Positions 10,793-36,388 of a DNA stretch of 64,000 nucleotides are shown here, piece after piece. This DNA is from Flavobacteriales bacterium (lineage in GTDB: Bacteria > Bacteroidota > Bacteroidia > Flavobacteriales > Flavobacteriaceae), in assembly GCA_004213995.1 (NCBI GenBank), contig SGZJ01000001.1, positions 62,001-126,000 of the forward strand. The letters run 5' to 3'. Each line of letters starts with the position of its first letter. Within the stretch, counting starts at the first letter, position 1. The notes under the pieces are model-generated. The model had not been told where the DNA came from. It was given only the letters and a program-made list of their open reading frames with translations, and did not search any database. The position numbers and the translations under genes were made by a program.

Positions 10793-11503
10793 CTAGTCTT
10801 TGTGAATTATAAAAATAGCAGGTTTTTTATCAATATTAATTTTATTTTTTTTCCATTCATTAACTGATAATGTTTTTATATACTCAGTACTTAAAGTTAT
10901 ATCACAAGCTATACAAAGATTAGTATCTCCACTTAAAGTTTTTGTTAGATCTTCTAACATCTTATTATTTCTGTATGGAGTTTCTATAAATATTTGTGAT
11001 TGATTTTGTTGATGAGAAGTTTTTTCTAGTTCTTTTATTTTATTTTTTTTGTCTGTTCTATCTATAGGCAGATAGCCATTAAAAGCAAAATTTTGTCCAT
11101 TTAAACCTGAGCTCATTATCGCTAGTAATATTGATGATGGACCTACAAGGGGTACAACTTTTATATTAGATTGATGAGCTATTTTTATTATATCAGATCC
11201 TGGGTCTGCTACACCAGGACAACCAGCATCTGAAATTAGACCAATGTTATTACCATTATGTATAGGGTCTAAAAAAGTGCTAAGTTCTTCATCTAAAGTG
11301 AATTTATTAATTAAATTGACTTTTAATGTGCTTTGGGCTTTTGAAGGTGAAATTTTCTTTATATATTTTCTACCTGCTTTTTCATTTTCAAAAAGGTAGT
11401 AATTAGTTGACTCAATTATTTTTTTAACTGAAATAGGGATAACCTCAAGAGGTTCATTTTCTCCAAGTGTATTCGGAATTAAATATAATATACCTTTGAT
11501 GAT
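10793..11503 (-). CDS. RsmI-type SAM-dependent methyltransferase with no AUG/GUG/UUG start
   Basis: Tetrapyrrole-methylase-fold enzyme of the RsmI (16S rRNA C1402 2'-O-methyltransferase) family. Reading codon by codon, the open frame runs from about 11539 and encodes, from 11503, the start region LYLIPNTLGENEPLEVIP, then ISDAGCPGVADPG and VVPLVGPSSILLAI, all typical motifs; 235-236 residues is the normal length for the short flavobacterial form. The first ATG in frame (11116) falls in mid-domain. Nothing between 11539 and the conserved start is ATG, GTG or TTG; ATC codons at 11503 and 11500 sit where homologues start, 8 nt after the dnaA stop. Either a rare start codon with coupling to dnaA, or a sequence error. 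Confidence 0.85.
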   Translation of the reverse strand: MIKGILYLIPNTLGENEPLEVIPISVKKIIESTNYYLFENEKAGRKYIKKISPSKAQSTLKVNLINKFTLDEELSTFLDPIHNGNNIGLISDAGCPGVADPGSDIIKIAHQSNIKVVPLVGPSSILLAIMSSGLNGQNFAFNGYLPIDRTDKKNKIKELEKTSHQQNQSQIFIETPYRNNKMLEDLTKTLSGDTNLCIACDITLSTEYIKTLSVNEWKKNKINIDKKPAIFIIHKD

Positions 11504-11511
11504 TGAGTTTT

Positions 11512-12939
11512 TTAGATAGAGAGTTTTTTCCCTAGATCTTCAACATATTTTCTGAATTGTTTGTCAGTAGAGGATAGATTGTCAACCGTTTTGCAAGCAT
11601 GCAAAACTGTAGCGTGATCTCTTTTTCCAATTTGTGAACCAATACTTGCCAAAGATGCTTTTGTGAATTTTTTTGCAAAAAACATAGCTAGTTGTCTCGC
11701 TTGCACTATGTGTCTTTTTCTTGTTTTTGATTGTAATGTGCTAACTTCCATTTGGAAATAGTCTGAAACAGTCTTTTGTATGTAATCTATTGATACTTCC
11801 CTTTTTGTATTTTTTACAAATTTCTCAACAATTTCTTTTGCAAGGGATAAAGTAATTTCTTTTCTATTAAAAGAAGCTTGGGCAATTAGAGATATAATTG
11901 CACCCTCTAATTCACGTACGTTTGTTTTGATGTTTTTAGCAACATATTCAATTACTTCTTCACTCATGTTTACACCATCACGGTATAATTTATTATTTAA
12001 AATTGACACCCTAGTTTCAAAGTCAGGGTTTTGCAGTTCTGCAGAGAGTCCCCATTTAAATCTAGATAATAATCTTAATTCAATATCCTGCATGTCAACT
12101 GGCGCTTTATCACTAGTTAAAATAACTTGCTTTCCATTTTGATGTAGATGGTTGAATATATGGAAAAATACATCCTGAGTTCCAGACTTACCTGATAAAA
12201 ACTGCACATCATCAACAATTAAAACATCAATAATTTGATAGAAATGAATAAAATCGTTTCTATTGTTTTTCTTAATAGCTTCAATATATTGTTGAGTAAA
12301 TTTTTCTGCGGTTATATATAAGACAGTCCTTTCTGGATATTTATCTTTTATGTCAATGCCTATTGAATGAGCTAAATGAGTTTTACCTAAACCAACACCT
12401 CCAAATATTAAAAGAGGATTAAATGAAGTTCCGCCCGGTTTGTTGGCAACAGCAATACCAGCATTTCTTGCAAGTCTATTTGAGTCACCTTCTAAAAAAT
12501 TATCAAAAGTATAGCTAGGGTTCAGTTGAGATTCAATTTTAACATTTTGAATTCCAGGAATAATAAATGGATTTTTTAGCTCGGGTATTTTTTTATTAAC
12601 ATAAGTAGTTGCATTTTGATAATTACTTGAGTTATTATTAGAACTTGGAATCTTTTCGGTAAATGGTTGTGTATTGCCGAAAGTATTTTCCATTTTAATA
12701 ATGTATACTAGTTTGGCATCATCTCCTAACTCTTTACTTAATGCTACTTTTAAAAGCTTCACATAATGTTCCTCTAACCATTCATAAAAGAATTTACTTG
12801 GAACTTGAATACTTAGTGAATTATCAGTTAACTTAACTGCCTCAATTGGTTCAAACCATGTTTTATATGCTTGAGGTTGAATATTGTCTTTTACAAACTT
12901 TAGGCAATTAGTCCAAACAGATATAGCTGTGATATTCAT
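11512..12939 (-). CDS. dnaA: Chromosomal replication initiator DnaA
   Basis: Binds DnaA boxes, opens oriC and loads the helicase. 475 residues from the ATG at 12939 (an in-frame TTG one codon earlier is less likely). Domain I is about residues 1-85, a low-complexity asparagine-rich linker follows, then the AAA+ domain with Walker A GGVGLGKTH and Walker B VLIVDDVQFL, and domain IV with the DnaA signature RDHATVLHACKTV. The gene is followed closely by the RsmI-type methyltransferase. I found no cluster of DnaA boxes in the 198 bp upstream. Confidence 0.98.
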   Translation of the reverse strand: MNITAISVWTNCLKFVKDNIQPQAYKTWFEPIEAVKLTDNSLSIQVPSKFFYEWLEEHYVKLLKVALSKELGDDAKLVYIIKMENTFGNTQPFTEKIPSSNNNSSNYQNATTYVNKKIPELKNPFIIPGIQNVKIESQLNPSYTFDNFLEGDSNRLARNAGIAVANKPGGTSFNPLLIFGGVGLGKTHLAHSIGIDIKDKYPERTVLYITAEKFTQQYIEAIKKNNRNDFIHFYQIIDVLIVDDVQFLSGKSGTQDVFFHIFNHLHQNGKQVILTSDKAPVDMQDIELRLLSRFKWGLSAELQNPDFETRVSILNNKLYRDGVNMSEEVIEYVAKNIKTNVRELEGAIISLIAQASFNRKEITLSLAKEIVEKFVKNTKREVSIDYIQKTVSDYFQMEVSTLQSKTRKRHIVQARQLAMFFAKKFTKASLASIGSQIGKRDHATVLHACKTVDNLSSTDKQFRKYVEDLGKKLSI

Positions 12940-21136: not shown

Positions 21137-21894
21137 TATTTTATTCTGATAAATCTGTTGTCAATCTTAGGCTTTAAAGTATCTATTTTAATAAAATAGT
21201 CAATTAATAAGTCTCTTATTTTATAATTTAAAAAAGTATTTTCTGAACTTTTATTAAAGAAGTCCATTTTATCTCCTCCGTTAAGTAAAAAATCACTTGT
21301 AGCTACATAGTAGTATTTATTGATATCAATACTTTTATTATTGATTCTTGCTCTAATCAGCTCATAATTTTTATCCAGCTCTAAATTAAGCCCTGAAATT
21401 GGATGTGCACTTTTAACTATTCTCAAATAATCAATCAATGTATAAATATCTTTTCCAGTTAATTTAGTAACAACAACTTCATTTTCAAAAGGCATTAAAT
21501 TATATGCGGTTTTTTCATTTATATTTCCTTTAGAAATTATTGATCTAATTCCGCCATAGTTTAAAAGAACAAAATCTATATTTTTATTTTTTTTTAATTT
21601 AAAAACAGGGTTACTTAATTCGAATACTGCATCAGCCATCATATTTCCTATTGCTGTATTTAATTCCCCTTCTTTTTTATCTAAAGTATAAGCTGAGTAG
21701 GCAAAAGTTGTAAACAGATCTTTTTCAATATTTTTTTTATAAGGTTCTATAAATTTAAAAATAGTTGAGTCAACATTAATTTCAGAATTTACTTCAATTC
21801 TACTAGTCTCAGCTTTATATAGTTGCCAATTATCTCCACAACTTATAATTAGTAGTAAAACAGAAAATTTAAATAGCTTAATAATTGATTTCAT
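21136..21894 (-). CDS. 5'-nucleotidase C-terminal domain lipoprotein
   Basis: 252 residues with a lipoprotein signal (lipobox IISC, Cys19). The rest matches the 5'-nucleotidase C-terminal (substrate-binding) domain: GNMMADA near residue 82, NYGGIRSII, NLMPFENEVVVTKLTGKDIY and a late DFLLNGGDKMDFF motif that provides the base-stacking aromatics in the family. It has no metallophosphatase motifs. Translated just ahead of the catalytic half; the two lipoproteins presumably pair in the periplasm or on a membrane surface. Confidence 0.9.
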
Positions 21895-21929
21895 TAGAGT
21901 TTTTATAGTTAAATCAAATTCATCTTTAT

Positions 21930-21937
21930 TACATTTG
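21930..21937 (+). promoter_or_regulatory. -7 box for the DUF6913-like/dapA unit
   Basis: TACATTTG, an exact TAnnTTTG, with TTA 18 bp upstream. It ends 18 nt before the ATG at 21956. An in-frame TTG at 21935 is inside this box, which argues against that longer reading of the gene. Confidence 0.55.
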
Positions 21938-21955
21938 TATTATAGTTTTAAATAT

Positions 21956-22474
21956 ATGTTTTTTAAATTATTCAAGAAAAAATCAAACGATAAATATTTA
22001 AATAATATTCTTAATAATCGCAAATCTTCGGTTAATAACAATAAAATAAAATCTGTTGGTATCATTATTAATTTAGAAGAATTTAATGATTATGACTCTT
22101 TAAGAAATGTCTTTACTTATCTAGGTGTAAATGAAAATAAAATAAAATTTGTTGCTTATGTAACTGAAAAAGATGAAACGTTGACAAGCTGGGATTCGTA
22201 TTTCACACCTTTAGATTTTGGTTGGAATGGAAATATATCTAATTATGATATTAATGAGTTTATTGAAACTGAATTTGATGCCTTAATCAGTTATTATGAT
22301 GAGAATATTCACGAGTTAAACCTAATTACTGCTAAATCTAAAGCAAATTTTAAAATCGGAATTTCTAATAAAGACCAAAGATTGCATGACTTTATTATCA
22401 ATATCAAAAGTAGTTTTATAGATATATTTAAAGTTGAACTTGAAAAATATTTAAAAGGGCTTAAAAAGATATGA
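21956..22474 (+). CDS. Conserved hypothetical protein (DUF6913-like) upstream of dapA
   Basis: 172 residues from the ATG at 21956. No signal peptide or membrane segment; a basic N-terminus, then a mixed alpha/beta region with SVGIIINLEEFNDYDSL, a central strand KFVAYVTEKDE and FDALISYYDENIHELNLI. The gene order (this protein, 4-bp overlap, dapA) matches the flavobacterial DUF6913 family as I remember it. The function is unknown; coupling to dapA suggests a link with lysine/peptidoglycan precursor synthesis or simply shared expression. Confidence 0.75.
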   Translation: MFFKLFKKKSNDKYLNNILNNRKSSVNNNKIKSVGIIINLEEFNDYDSLRNVFTYLGVNENKIKFVAYVTEKDETLTSWDSYFTPLDFGWNGNISNYDINEFIETEFDALISYYDENIHELNLITAKSKANFKIGISNKDQRLHDFIINIKSSFIDIFKVELEKYLKGLKKI

Positions 22475-34130: not shown

Positions 34131-35030
34131 GTTATCTATACATTTAACTACATCTTCAATTTTATAGTTTGTTTTAAACCAAGTTATATCTTTATTGGAG
34201 TTAAACCATGTCATTTGTCTTTTTGCAAATCTTCTTGTATTTTTTTTAATATCATTAATTGCTTGATCTAAATTTGATTTTCCATCTAAAAAATTAAAAA
34301 TTTCTTTGTAACCTATTGTATTTAAACTGTTAAGATTTTTATAACTAATTAAATCAATAGCTTCTTTAATTAATCCTTCATTTATCATATTGTCAACTCT
34401 TGTATTTATCCTTTCATATATCATCTCTCGTTCATCTCTTAGTCCAATTTGTATTTTTTTGAAATTACGTACAGTATATTCTTTTTTCAAGTAAGAAGAA
34501 TATGGCTTACCACTAGAAATAGTGACTTCCAATGCTCTTATAATTCTTCTATGATTATTTAAATCAATATTTTTATAAGAAATTAAATCCTTTTCTTTTA
34601 ACTCATTTTGCATATGTTTAAGACCTCTTATTTTAAATTCATTATTTAAAAAGTCTCTAACTTTTTCATCGCTTTTGGGGATTTGATCTAATCCGTAATT
34701 AATAACATCTAAATATAATCCAGATCCACCTACAAGAACTGCTAAATCTGTTTTTTTATGAATTTTTGAAATGCTATTAAGAGCATCTTTTTCAAAATCA
34801 CCTATAGAATAACTATCCTTAACGCTTTTATTATTTATTAGGTGATGTTTAACCCTATTTAAGTCTACATTTGAAGGTTTAGCTGACCCAATATTCAATT
34901 CTTTGTAAAACTGTCTAGAATCAGCTGATATTATCTCTGTGCCATATTTTTCTGCTAATTCTATGGCTAATTTTGTTTTACCAATTGCCGTGGGCCCAAG
35001 AATTGATATAAGATATTTATTCATCATCAA
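34116..35030 (-). CDS. miaA: tRNA dimethylallyltransferase
   Basis: Adds the isopentenyl group to A37 of tRNAs that read codons starting with U. 304 residues: P-loop LGPTAIGKTKLA near residues 10-21, TEIISADSRQFYKEL near residues 31-45, the substrate motif GGSGLYLD near residues 101-108 and RFAKRQMTWF near the C-terminus. The length is normal. The ATG overlaps the stop of the exonuclease/GIY-YIG gene by 4 bp, making it the last gene of the minus-strand run from hbd. Confidence 0.97.
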   Translation of the reverse strand: MMMNKYLISILGPTAIGKTKLAIELAEKYGTEIISADSRQFYKELNIGSAKPSNVDLNRVKHHLINNKSVKDSYSIGDFEKDALNSISKIHKKTDLAVLVGGSGLYLDVINYGLDQIPKSDEKVRDFLNNEFKIRGLKHMQNELKEKDLISYKNIDLNNHRRIIRALEVTISSGKPYSSYLKKEYTVRNFKKIQIGLRDEREMIYERINTRVDNMINEGLIKEAIDLISYKNLNSLNTIGYKEIFNFLDGKSNLDQAINDIKKNTRRFAKRQMTWFNSNKDITWFKTNYKIEDVVKCIDNLITD

Positions 35031-36388
35031 TAATTTAAAATCTTAATTCCTTTGGCTTTTCTTAAAAAACTTTGAATTATTTGTTGATTGTCTTTATTGT
35101 GCTCCATTGAAATTATAATTTTCTTTAAAACCTTTATGTTATTTATTTGAAAGTTTAAATTAAAATATCCCAAACCAATAAACAAGCCGTTTTCAACTAA
35201 AACAAAACTACTTTCATCGATATTTCGTCCTTTATCTATTATAGCAAAATTTTTATTTTCAAAATTTAGATATTTAATAGCTTTATGAATTCTTTCGTTA
35301 TACTGATCAGGTTTTTCAATATTTATGCATGCACCATAGCATTCATTTATGGAATATCTAAAGCAATTATTGTTGGACTTATATACTCCACAGAGTTTTT
35401 GACACAAATCATTTTTATTAATTATTTTGTTTAAGAATGAAAGGGCGTTATTCATATTCTTAAATGTTGTCAAAGGATCTTTACCTGAAATAATTTTAGA
35501 AATACTTAGATTTATATAATTATTTTTATCAATACTTTTAAAAAGTCCGTAAGGATATATAGTCTTGCGTAACTTTCTGTTAAAAATAGGTTTATGTAAT
35601 TTAACTTGATTGCTCTCTTTAAGTAAAGCAATTAATTCACTTCCAGTTTCATCATAGCTAACTGAAGACGTATTAATTTGTAGTTTTTGTGATTTACGGT
35701 CTTTTCCTGTAAAATGTTGGTTAACTCTTTTTTTAATATTTTTGCTTTTGCCTATATATATTATTTCGGAATTTTTATCGTGCATATAATATATCCCTGT
35801 TGAAAATGGTAAATCATCTAAAATTTCGGTTAAGTTTTTTGGTAAATTAGATTTACTAGTATTCTTAATATTATTTATAATAATATTTTTATCTAAATCT
35901 TTATCTAGTAGTAGCTTAAATAATTTGACTGTAGCTAATGCATCGCCGCTTGCTCTGTGTCTTTGTGTAAGAGGAATTCCTAATTGCTTTGTTAATTTAC
36001 CCAAGCTATATGAATTCATATCTAAAATTAATTTTTTAGACAAGTCTAAAGTACACAAGGTATTTCTTCTAAAATTATAACCAAGTCTATTATATTCCGT
36101 CTTTAAAATTCTATAGTCAAAAGACGTATTGTGGGCTACAAATATTGTGTCTTCAGTTATTTCTAATATTCTTTTAGCTACCTCATGAAACTTGGGAGCA
36201 TTGCGTAGCATTTTATTATTTATTCCAGTTAGATTAACTACAAAAGGTTGGATGTTTTTTTCAGGATTTATTAATGAAATAAATTTATCAATTATTTCAG
36301 TCCCATCAAATTTATATATAGCAATTTCTGTAATTCCTTCTTCATTGAATTTACCACCGGTTGTCTCTATATCTACAATACTGTATAT
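35027..36388 (-). CDS. DnaQ-like exonuclease fused to a UvrC-type GIY-YIG domain, non-AUG start
   Basis: About 453 residues. The N-terminal DEDDh 3'-5' exonuclease starts IYSIVDIETTGGKFNEEG (DxE motif) and continues with VAHNTSFDYRIL and QRHRASGDALAT. A central GIY-YIG nuclease domain follows (TGIYYMHDKNSEIIYIGKSKNIKKR), then a C-terminal region resembling UvrC/Cho proteins with cysteines (CQKLCGV...CFRYSINECYGAC). The first ATG (36211) would remove the DxE motif. Extending upstream gives all conserved residues but no ATG, GTG or TTG before the yggS stop at 36400-36398; ATA at 36388 aligns with the usual methionine, and ATT at 36391 is the alternative. Probably repair or proofreading. Confidence 0.85.
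   Translation of the reverse strand: MYSIVDIETTGGKFNEEGITEIAIYKFDGTEIIDKFISLINPEKNIQPFVVNLTGINNKMLRNAPKFHEVAKRILEITEDTIFVAHNTSFDYRILKTEYNRLGYNFRRNTLCTLDLSKKLILDMNSYSLGKLTKQLGIPLTQRHRASGDALATVKLFKLLLDKDLDKNIIINNIKNTSKSNLPKNLTEILDDLPFSTGIYYMHDKNSEIIYIGKSKNIKKRVNQHFTGKDRKSQKLQINTSSVSYDETGSELIALLKESNQVKLHKPIFNRKLRKTIYPYGLFKSIDKNNYINLSISKIISGKDPLTTFKNMNNALSFLNKIINKNDLCQKLCGVYKSNNNCFRYSINECYGACINIEKPDQYNERIHKAIKYLNFENKNFAIIDKGRNIDESSFVLVENGLFIGLGYFNLNFQINNIKVLKKIIISMEHNKDNQQIIQSFLRKAKGIKILNY

What the first reader, a model, noticed from the sequence alone, without database searches (positions are those of the whole stretch)
10793..11539. RsmI-type methyltransferase without any AUG, GUG or UUG start
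Codon-by-codon reading shows the conserved N-terminus (LYLIPNTLGENEPLEVIP) but no standard start between the last upstream stop (near 11540) and that motif. ATC codons at 11503 and 11500 sit at the expected place, 8 nt after the dnaA stop codon. The first ATG, 11116, is in mid-domain. This points to initiation at AUC/AUA coupled to dnaA termination, or to a sequencing error.
Basis: partly seen in the sequence, partly recalled or inferred. Interest (0 to 1): 0.55.

Follow-up and report, generated by a model that had tools for sequence, protein, structure and literature searches.

The report
Methyltransferase gene starting with AUC/AUU/AUA
In a group of small-genome flavobacteria, a conserved methyltransferase gene just behind dnaA has no normal start codon and appears to begin at AUC, AUU or AUA instead, a rare kind of start best known from the gene for initiation factor IF3.

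Summary
The ORF (11539..10793, minus strand) has no ATG/GTG/TTG before 11116. All 5 species held of the window's genus, and all 18 species in which the gene was found in a second flavobacterial genus, lack a standard start too. At window codon 11500-11498, where 26 of 104 other loci have their nearest standard start, the 23 genomes carry ATC (12), ATT (9) or ATA (2). The ORF from that codon is 235 codons in all 23. In the window's genus the N-terminal half is under purifying selection (dN/dS 0.03-0.08). No internal standard start is shared. The gap to the dnaA stop is fixed (10-12 nt) while the frame relative to dnaA is not (0, +1, +2), which argues against fusion or programmed frameshift.

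Best reading: initiator tRNA starts at AUH in an A-rich leader, perhaps helped by ribosomes terminating on dnaA, and probably IF3-sensitive. In the same genome infC and an exonuclease gene also lack standard starts and appear to begin at AUA. 'RsmI-type' is partly right: this is a paralog below the RsmI cut-off; a true RsmI is elsewhere in the genome. Initiation at AUH, coupling and IF3 control are inferred, not measured.

The parts
10793..11500 (-). CDS of the TP_methylase-family SAM-dependent methyltransferase (RsmI paralog), 235 codons plus stop, read from the AUC at 11500
   Evidence: 235 codons in 23 of 23 genomes of two genera; PF00590 30.2 bits against a cut-off of 27.8; PDB 1wyz_A residues 4-234 aligned to residues 4-234, E 1.1e-64
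11498..11500 (-). Proposed start codon AUC; AUC, AUU or AUA in all 23 genomes of two genera
11501..11503 (-). Upstream tandem ATC; not conserved (ACT in one congener, other codons in the second genus), so a less likely start
11501..11511 (-). Spacer between the dnaA stop and the proposed start (11 nt here, 10-12 nt in 23 of 23 genomes), with A at -3 (21 of 23 genomes)
11512..12939 (-). dnaA, ending in TAA at 11514-11512
   Evidence: TIGR00362 510 bits against a cut-off of 343.9
11114..11116 (-). First in-frame standard start codon (ATG), codon 129 counted from 11500; not the start, since the first standard codon falls at different places in the congeners
35027..36388 (-). Second gene of the window without a standard start: RNase_T exonuclease with GIY-YIG domain, proposed AUA start at 36388-36386

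Best explanation
The gene is intact and is translated from a near-cognate AUH codon (AUC at 11500-11498 here; AUU or AUA in relatives) by the normal initiator tRNA, pairing at the first two codon positions with a mismatch at the third. The start sits in an A-rich leader with A at -3, 11 nt after the dnaA stop, so the two genes must share an mRNA and ribosomes ending on dnaA may help. Such starts are discriminated against by IF3, so the expected effect is low, IF3-sensitive synthesis of the methyltransferase. Shown: no standard start, conservation of AUH and of spacing, purifying selection, absence of a conserved frame with dnaA. Inferred: that initiation happens there, that fMet is the first residue, that dnaA translation helps, and that IF3 controls it.
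For: 23 of 23 genomes (5 of the window's genus, 18 of a second) have ATC 12, ATT 9, ATA 2 at this codon and no standard codon upstream; ORF of 235 codons in 23 of 23; spacer 10-12 nt in 23 of 23, in frame 0 (5), +1 (5) and +2 (13) relative to dnaA. Fixed spacing with a free frame is what a start needs and a fusion does not. The first internal standard codon lies 19 to 128 codons in, at no place shared by all. dN/dS of codons 1-128 is 0.028-0.084 in 10 of 10 species pairs of the genus. 26 of 104 other loci have their nearest standard start exactly at this codon; the B. thetaiotaomicron homolog 1wyz aligns in the same register. Independent genes of the same genome look alike: infC lacks a standard start in 5 of 5 congeners and has ATA at the expected place, the exonuclease in 4 of 4 congeners that have it. 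In 29 other flavobacterial loci the exonuclease codon is ATT 13, ATC 1, TTG 12, ATG 3, an alternation expected of a start codon. A at -3 in 14 of 14 MTase, exonuclease and infC starts of the genus, and no ATG in any frame within 40 nt; A-3 favours initiation in Flavobacterium johnsoniae (PMC6847099, abstract). IF3 tolerates only Watson-Crick pairs at the first two codon positions and weaker pairs at the third less well (PMC10158994, passages).
Against: No protein, ribosome-profiling or reporter data. The AUH codons are synonymous for isoleucine, so conservation of the codon alone could be read as conservation of Ile inside a longer protein; what argues against that is the lack of any start or constant frame upstream. 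Six of the 104 loci outside the genus, and seven of the 28 other small genomes with a standard start, also have a short dnaA gap but keep ATG/GTG/TTG, so the tight junction does not by itself produce AUH. All 23 genomes are probably draft genomes of uncultured cells (the named matches are MAGs).
Confidence: 0.83

Rival explanations
1. Sequencing or assembly error removed an ATG or shifted the frame.
For: A-run near the junction; draft genome.
Against: The same absence in 5 of 5 genomes of the genus and 18 of 18 with the gene in a second genus, with different AUH codons and spacers.
Confidence: 0.01
2. Programmed frameshift or stop read-through makes a DnaA-methyltransferase fusion.
For: A-rich junction; in 5 of 23 genomes the dnaA stop is in the methyltransferase frame.
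Against: All three frames occur among the 23 genomes and within each genus; the dnaA stop is kept; relatives with a separate ATG-started gene are the rule.
Confidence: 0.03
3. Translation starts at an internal ATG/GTG/TTG, giving a truncated protein.
For: ATG at 11116 in the window.
Against: The first standard codon ranges from codon 19 to 128 among the 23 genomes, and the stretch upstream of 11116 is under purifying selection in the genus.
Confidence: 0.03
4. The gene is a decaying pseudogene.
For: Small genomes; start lost.
Against: dN/dS 0.028-0.084 over codons 1-128 in 10 of 10 pairs; no stop or length change in 23 of 23.
Confidence: 0.01
5. AUH initiation is real but carries no regulatory meaning: a weak start tolerated because little protein is needed.
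For: Small genomes; the codon drifts between AUC, AUU and AUA (at least 5 changes); if each third-base change hit ATG one time in three, five changes without ATG have a chance of about 0.13, so avoidance of ATG is not shown.
Against: No return to a standard codon in 23 genomes of two genera; similar starts in infC and the exonuclease.
Confidence: 0.4

Closest known systems
infC (IF3): AUU start in E. coli, AUC in Streptomyces (PMC5472188, passages)
   Same: No standard start, AUH codon conserved across species; the infC of this very genus appears to use AUA (5 of 5).
   Different: infC is a translation factor that represses itself; here the product is a methyltransferase of unknown substrate and no IF3 dependence has been measured.
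E. coli pcnB (AUU) and lepA of Borrelia burgdorferi and Bacillus licheniformis (inferred AUU), as cited in PMC1780047 (passages)
   Same: A non-infC gene with an AUU start, inferred from homology for lepA as here.
   Different: Different genes and phyla; here the codon varies among AUC, AUU and AUA over 23 species.
Streptomyces sigR (GUC start repressed by IF3; PMC5472188, passages)
   Same: Non-canonical start in a gene followed across many species; misread by gene callers that accept only ATG/GTG/TTG.
   Different: First-position change (GUC), tested at the bench; it has a Shine-Dalgarno-type leader, which Bacteroidota largely lack (PMC6847099, abstract).
PDB 1wyz, putative SAM-dependent methyltransferase of B. 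thetaiotaomicron
   Same: Same protein over nearly its full length (residues 4-234, E 1.1e-64).
   Different: Structural-genomics entry; function and native start not examined here.

Membership tests
RsmI, 16S rRNA (cytidine-1402-2'-O)-methyltransferase (TIGR00096 equivalog) | Score over the curated cut-off of 167.9 bits | tested here: not met
   101.1 bits; another ORF of the genome, L002:1411-2082, scores 263.5
RsmI, 16S rRNA (cytidine-1402-2'-O)-methyltransferase (TIGR00096 equivalog) | 2'-O-methylation of C1402 | not testable with these tools
   No assay
TP_methylase superfamily (PF00590) | Score over the Pfam gathering cut-off of 27.8 bits | tested here: met
   30.2 bits
Natural AUH-started genes (infC, pcnB type) | No ATG/GTG/TTG that can open the conserved reading frame | tested here: met
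   23 of 23 genomes
Natural AUH-started genes (infC, pcnB type) | Conserved AUU/AUC/AUA at the expected start | tested here: met
   ATC 12, ATT 9, ATA 2
Natural AUH-started genes (infC, pcnB type) | Initiation shown at that codon | not testable with these tools
   Needs N-terminal peptides, profiling or reporters
Natural AUH-started genes (infC, pcnB type) | Repression by IF3 | not testable with these tools
   Needs IF3 levels changed in a living cell or a purified system
Termination-reinitiation gene pair | Overlap or very short gap to the upstream stop | tested here: inconclusive
   Gap 10-12 nt in 23 of 23; PMC10666635 treats -8 to +10 nt as predictive and +11 to +20 as variable (passages)

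The most novel reading that the evidence does not exclude
Flavobacteria keep a small IF3 regulon marked by AUH start codons (infC at AUA, the RNase_T/GIY-YIG exonuclease at AUU/AUA/AUC, this methyltransferase at AUC/AUU/AUA), and because RsmI-like enzymes can modify the decoding centre that checks start codons, the methyltransferase closes a feedback loop on start-codon stringency.
Probability: 0.12. Interest if true: 0.85.

Novelty: new member of a known kind. Interest (0 to 1): 0.58.

Why it matters
Only a handful of bacterial genes are known to start at AUU, AUC or AUA, and gene callers that accept only ATG/GTG/TTG shorten or miss such genes. A codon that stays AUH over 23 species while drifting between AUC, AUU and AUA, in a phylum that largely does without Shine-Dalgarno sequences, makes it directly testable whether weak starts are kept for regulation by IF3 or merely tolerated. 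The exonuclease, whose start alternates between ATT and TTG across the family, gives a culturable test case.

Tried and rejected
Sequencing error, fusion or frameshift, internal start and pseudogene were tested and rejected. A structured leader was looked for: 5 of 5 junctions of the genus fold no better than dinucleotide shuffles (z -0.59 to 1.16), so no hairpin is claimed. An altered initiator tRNA was looked for only in part: ARAGORN found no tRNA in the window and one tRNA-Met(cat) in the fetched stretches, which I could not call initiator from its sequence, so this stays untested. Whether the AUH start arose once or twice is open: on the quick tree each genus is one clade and the two lie apart, but the AU test does not reject a single clade (p 0.0597), and long branches are in play. 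Avoidance of ATG is not statistically shown (5 changes). AUC is over-represented at the start (12 of 23) against 104 of 708 isoleucine codons inside the ORFs, but the species are not independent, so I draw nothing from it. Loss of the intervening phosphatase gene does not by itself explain loss of ATG: 6 loci with gaps of 26-89 nt keep a standard start. In the exonuclease, the phylum-wide sample gave a standard start in 22 of the 22 loci that my motif could read, of 29 tried, and in the second genus 10 of 15 loci have a TTG or GTG upstream: both count against AUH being general for that gene. A structure prediction was considered and not run.

Papers: passages only of PMC5472188, PMC1780047, PMC6847099, PMC5053481, PMC7694415, PMC10158994, PMC10666635; search listings otherwise. 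Binns and Masters 2002 and Kimura and Suzuki 2010 were seen only as cited there. None of the listings shows, by title or start of abstract, a report of this gene's start or of AUH starts in Bacteroidota; the library is open-access only and the listings were capped.

Full report
The observation. On the minus strand the frame is open from 11539 to 10793 and its first ATG/GTG/TTG is the ATG at 11116. The frame encodes a methyltransferase that is conserved from LYLIPNTLGENEPLEVIP on. dnaA (TIGR00362, 510 bits) ends in TAA at 11514-11512. In 416,829 bases of this genome, 352 dominant stop-to-stop ORFs of at least 100 codons have a median first-start offset of 4 codons; this one, at 141, is the most extreme.

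Not an error. The genome search gave 5 species of the genus, all with the gene. None has a standard start before the LYLIP motif; the codon is ATC in three and ATT in two. Of 113 loci examined (window, 85; some genomes occur twice), the 9 without a standard codon are these 5 species; the other 104 have one, the nearest to the motif being ATG in 99, GTG in 3 and TTG in 2, and lying exactly at the codon in question in 26.

A second genus. 28 have a standard start; 2 do not, both of one genus. Of 21 genomes of that genus, 18 have the gene (2 more show only the RsmI-like match, 1 none; the genomes are 56-86% complete), and all 18 lack a standard start. Together 23 of 23 genomes have ATC (12), ATT (9) or ATA (2), an ORF of 235 codons, and 10-12 nt between the dnaA stop and this codon, in frame 0 (5), +1 (5) or +2 (13) relative to dnaA. 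A at -3 occurs in 21 of 23. The first standard codon inside the ORF lies 19 to 128 codons in. On trees from the rest of the gene the codon changed at least 5 times, each time within AUH. One origin or two is not settled (AU p 0.0597).

Functional gene. dN/dS over codons 1-128 is 0.028-0.084 in the ten species pairs of the window's genus; synonymous sites are near saturation in the wider pairs. The protein matches PDB 1wyz over residues 4-234 in the same register and passes the Pfam TP_methylase cut-off (30.2 against 27.8). It does not pass the RsmI equivalog cut-off (101.1 against 167.9), whereas another ORF of the genome does (263.5), with an ordinary ATG. It is thus an RsmI paralog, and its substrate is unknown.

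Neighbourhood. In 74 of 100 loci with dnaA in the flank, 400-700 nt separate dnaA from the methyltransferase; in the one locus inspected the gene in between is a low-molecular-weight phosphatase (PF01451, 123.4 bits). In the window's genus and in the second genus the two genes are 10-12 nt apart. Six other loci with gaps of 26-89 nt, and seven small genomes with a short gap, keep a standard start.

Other genes of the same kind. infC lacks a standard start in 34 of 34 loci (5 of the genus, 29 other genera of the family); 33 have ATA followed by GCN at the expected place and one (L151) has ATC. In a comparison of 65 genes (window and C1:1-60000) with stretches of the four congeners, only the methyltransferase and the RNase_T/GIY-YIG exonuclease had a conserved protein stretch without a usable standard start in both genomes. 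The exonuclease has ATA in 4 of 4 congeners that have it; in the 29 best-matching other loci of the family (of 59 other genomes searched) the codon is ATT 13, TTG 12, ATG 3, ATC 1. In the second genus 5 of 15 loci lack a standard start, with ATT or ATA, and 10 have an upstream TTG or GTG; in the phylum sample 22 of 22 readable loci have a standard start.

Mechanism. Baez et al. report that adenine at -3 favours initiation in Flavobacterium johnsoniae and that Bacteroidetes lack Shine-Dalgarno sequences (PMC6847099, abstract). The 14 AUH starts of the genus examined (5 methyltransferase, 4 exonuclease, 5 infC) all have A at -3 and no ATG in any frame within 40 nt. IF3 demands Watson-Crick pairs at the first two codon positions and disfavours weak pairs at the third (PMC10158994, passages), which fits AUH as weak but usable starts; infC autoregulation and IF3 repression of sigR are the precedents (PMC5472188, passages). 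Reinitiation after dnaA is possible, but gaps of +11 to +20 nt gave variable coupling in published tests (PMC10666635, passages). RsmI and RsmH modify C1402 near the P site, and their loss affects initiation (PMC5053481, PMC7694415, passages); whether this paralog acts there is not known.

Verdict. An ordinary methyltransferase with a rare, conserved kind of start: a new member of a known kind. The start assignment rests on comparative evidence alone.

Noticed in passing
window 35027-36388 (-); L174-L177, L196-L224, L312-L326: RNase_T/GIY-YIG exonuclease without a standard start in the genus (ATA, 4 of 4); in 29 other family loci the codon alternates ATT 13, TTG 12, ATG 3, ATC 1.
   Followed up: partly
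L123 (G000:C1:61224-61721, minus strand, just outside the window); L120-L122, L124, L125-L153: infC lacks ATG/GTG/TTG in 34 of 34 flavobacterial loci; ATA-GCN at the expected place in 33.
   Followed up: partly
L002:1411-2082 (-): True RsmI ORF (TIGR00096, 263.5 bits) with an ATG start, separate from the paralog behind dnaA.
   Followed up: yes
L031:2046-2510 (+) and the dnaA-methyltransferase gap in 74 of 100 loci: A low-molecular-weight phosphatase gene lies between dnaA and the methyltransferase in L031, and a gap of similar size is common in the family; it is absent from this place in the window's genus.
   Followed up: partly
window 21743-22474 (+): DUF6913 ORF whose first standard codon is at codon 64; the Pfam match begins at residue 78, and the conserved stretch before it overlaps a gene on the other strand, so it is probably an ordinary start.
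   Followed up: partly
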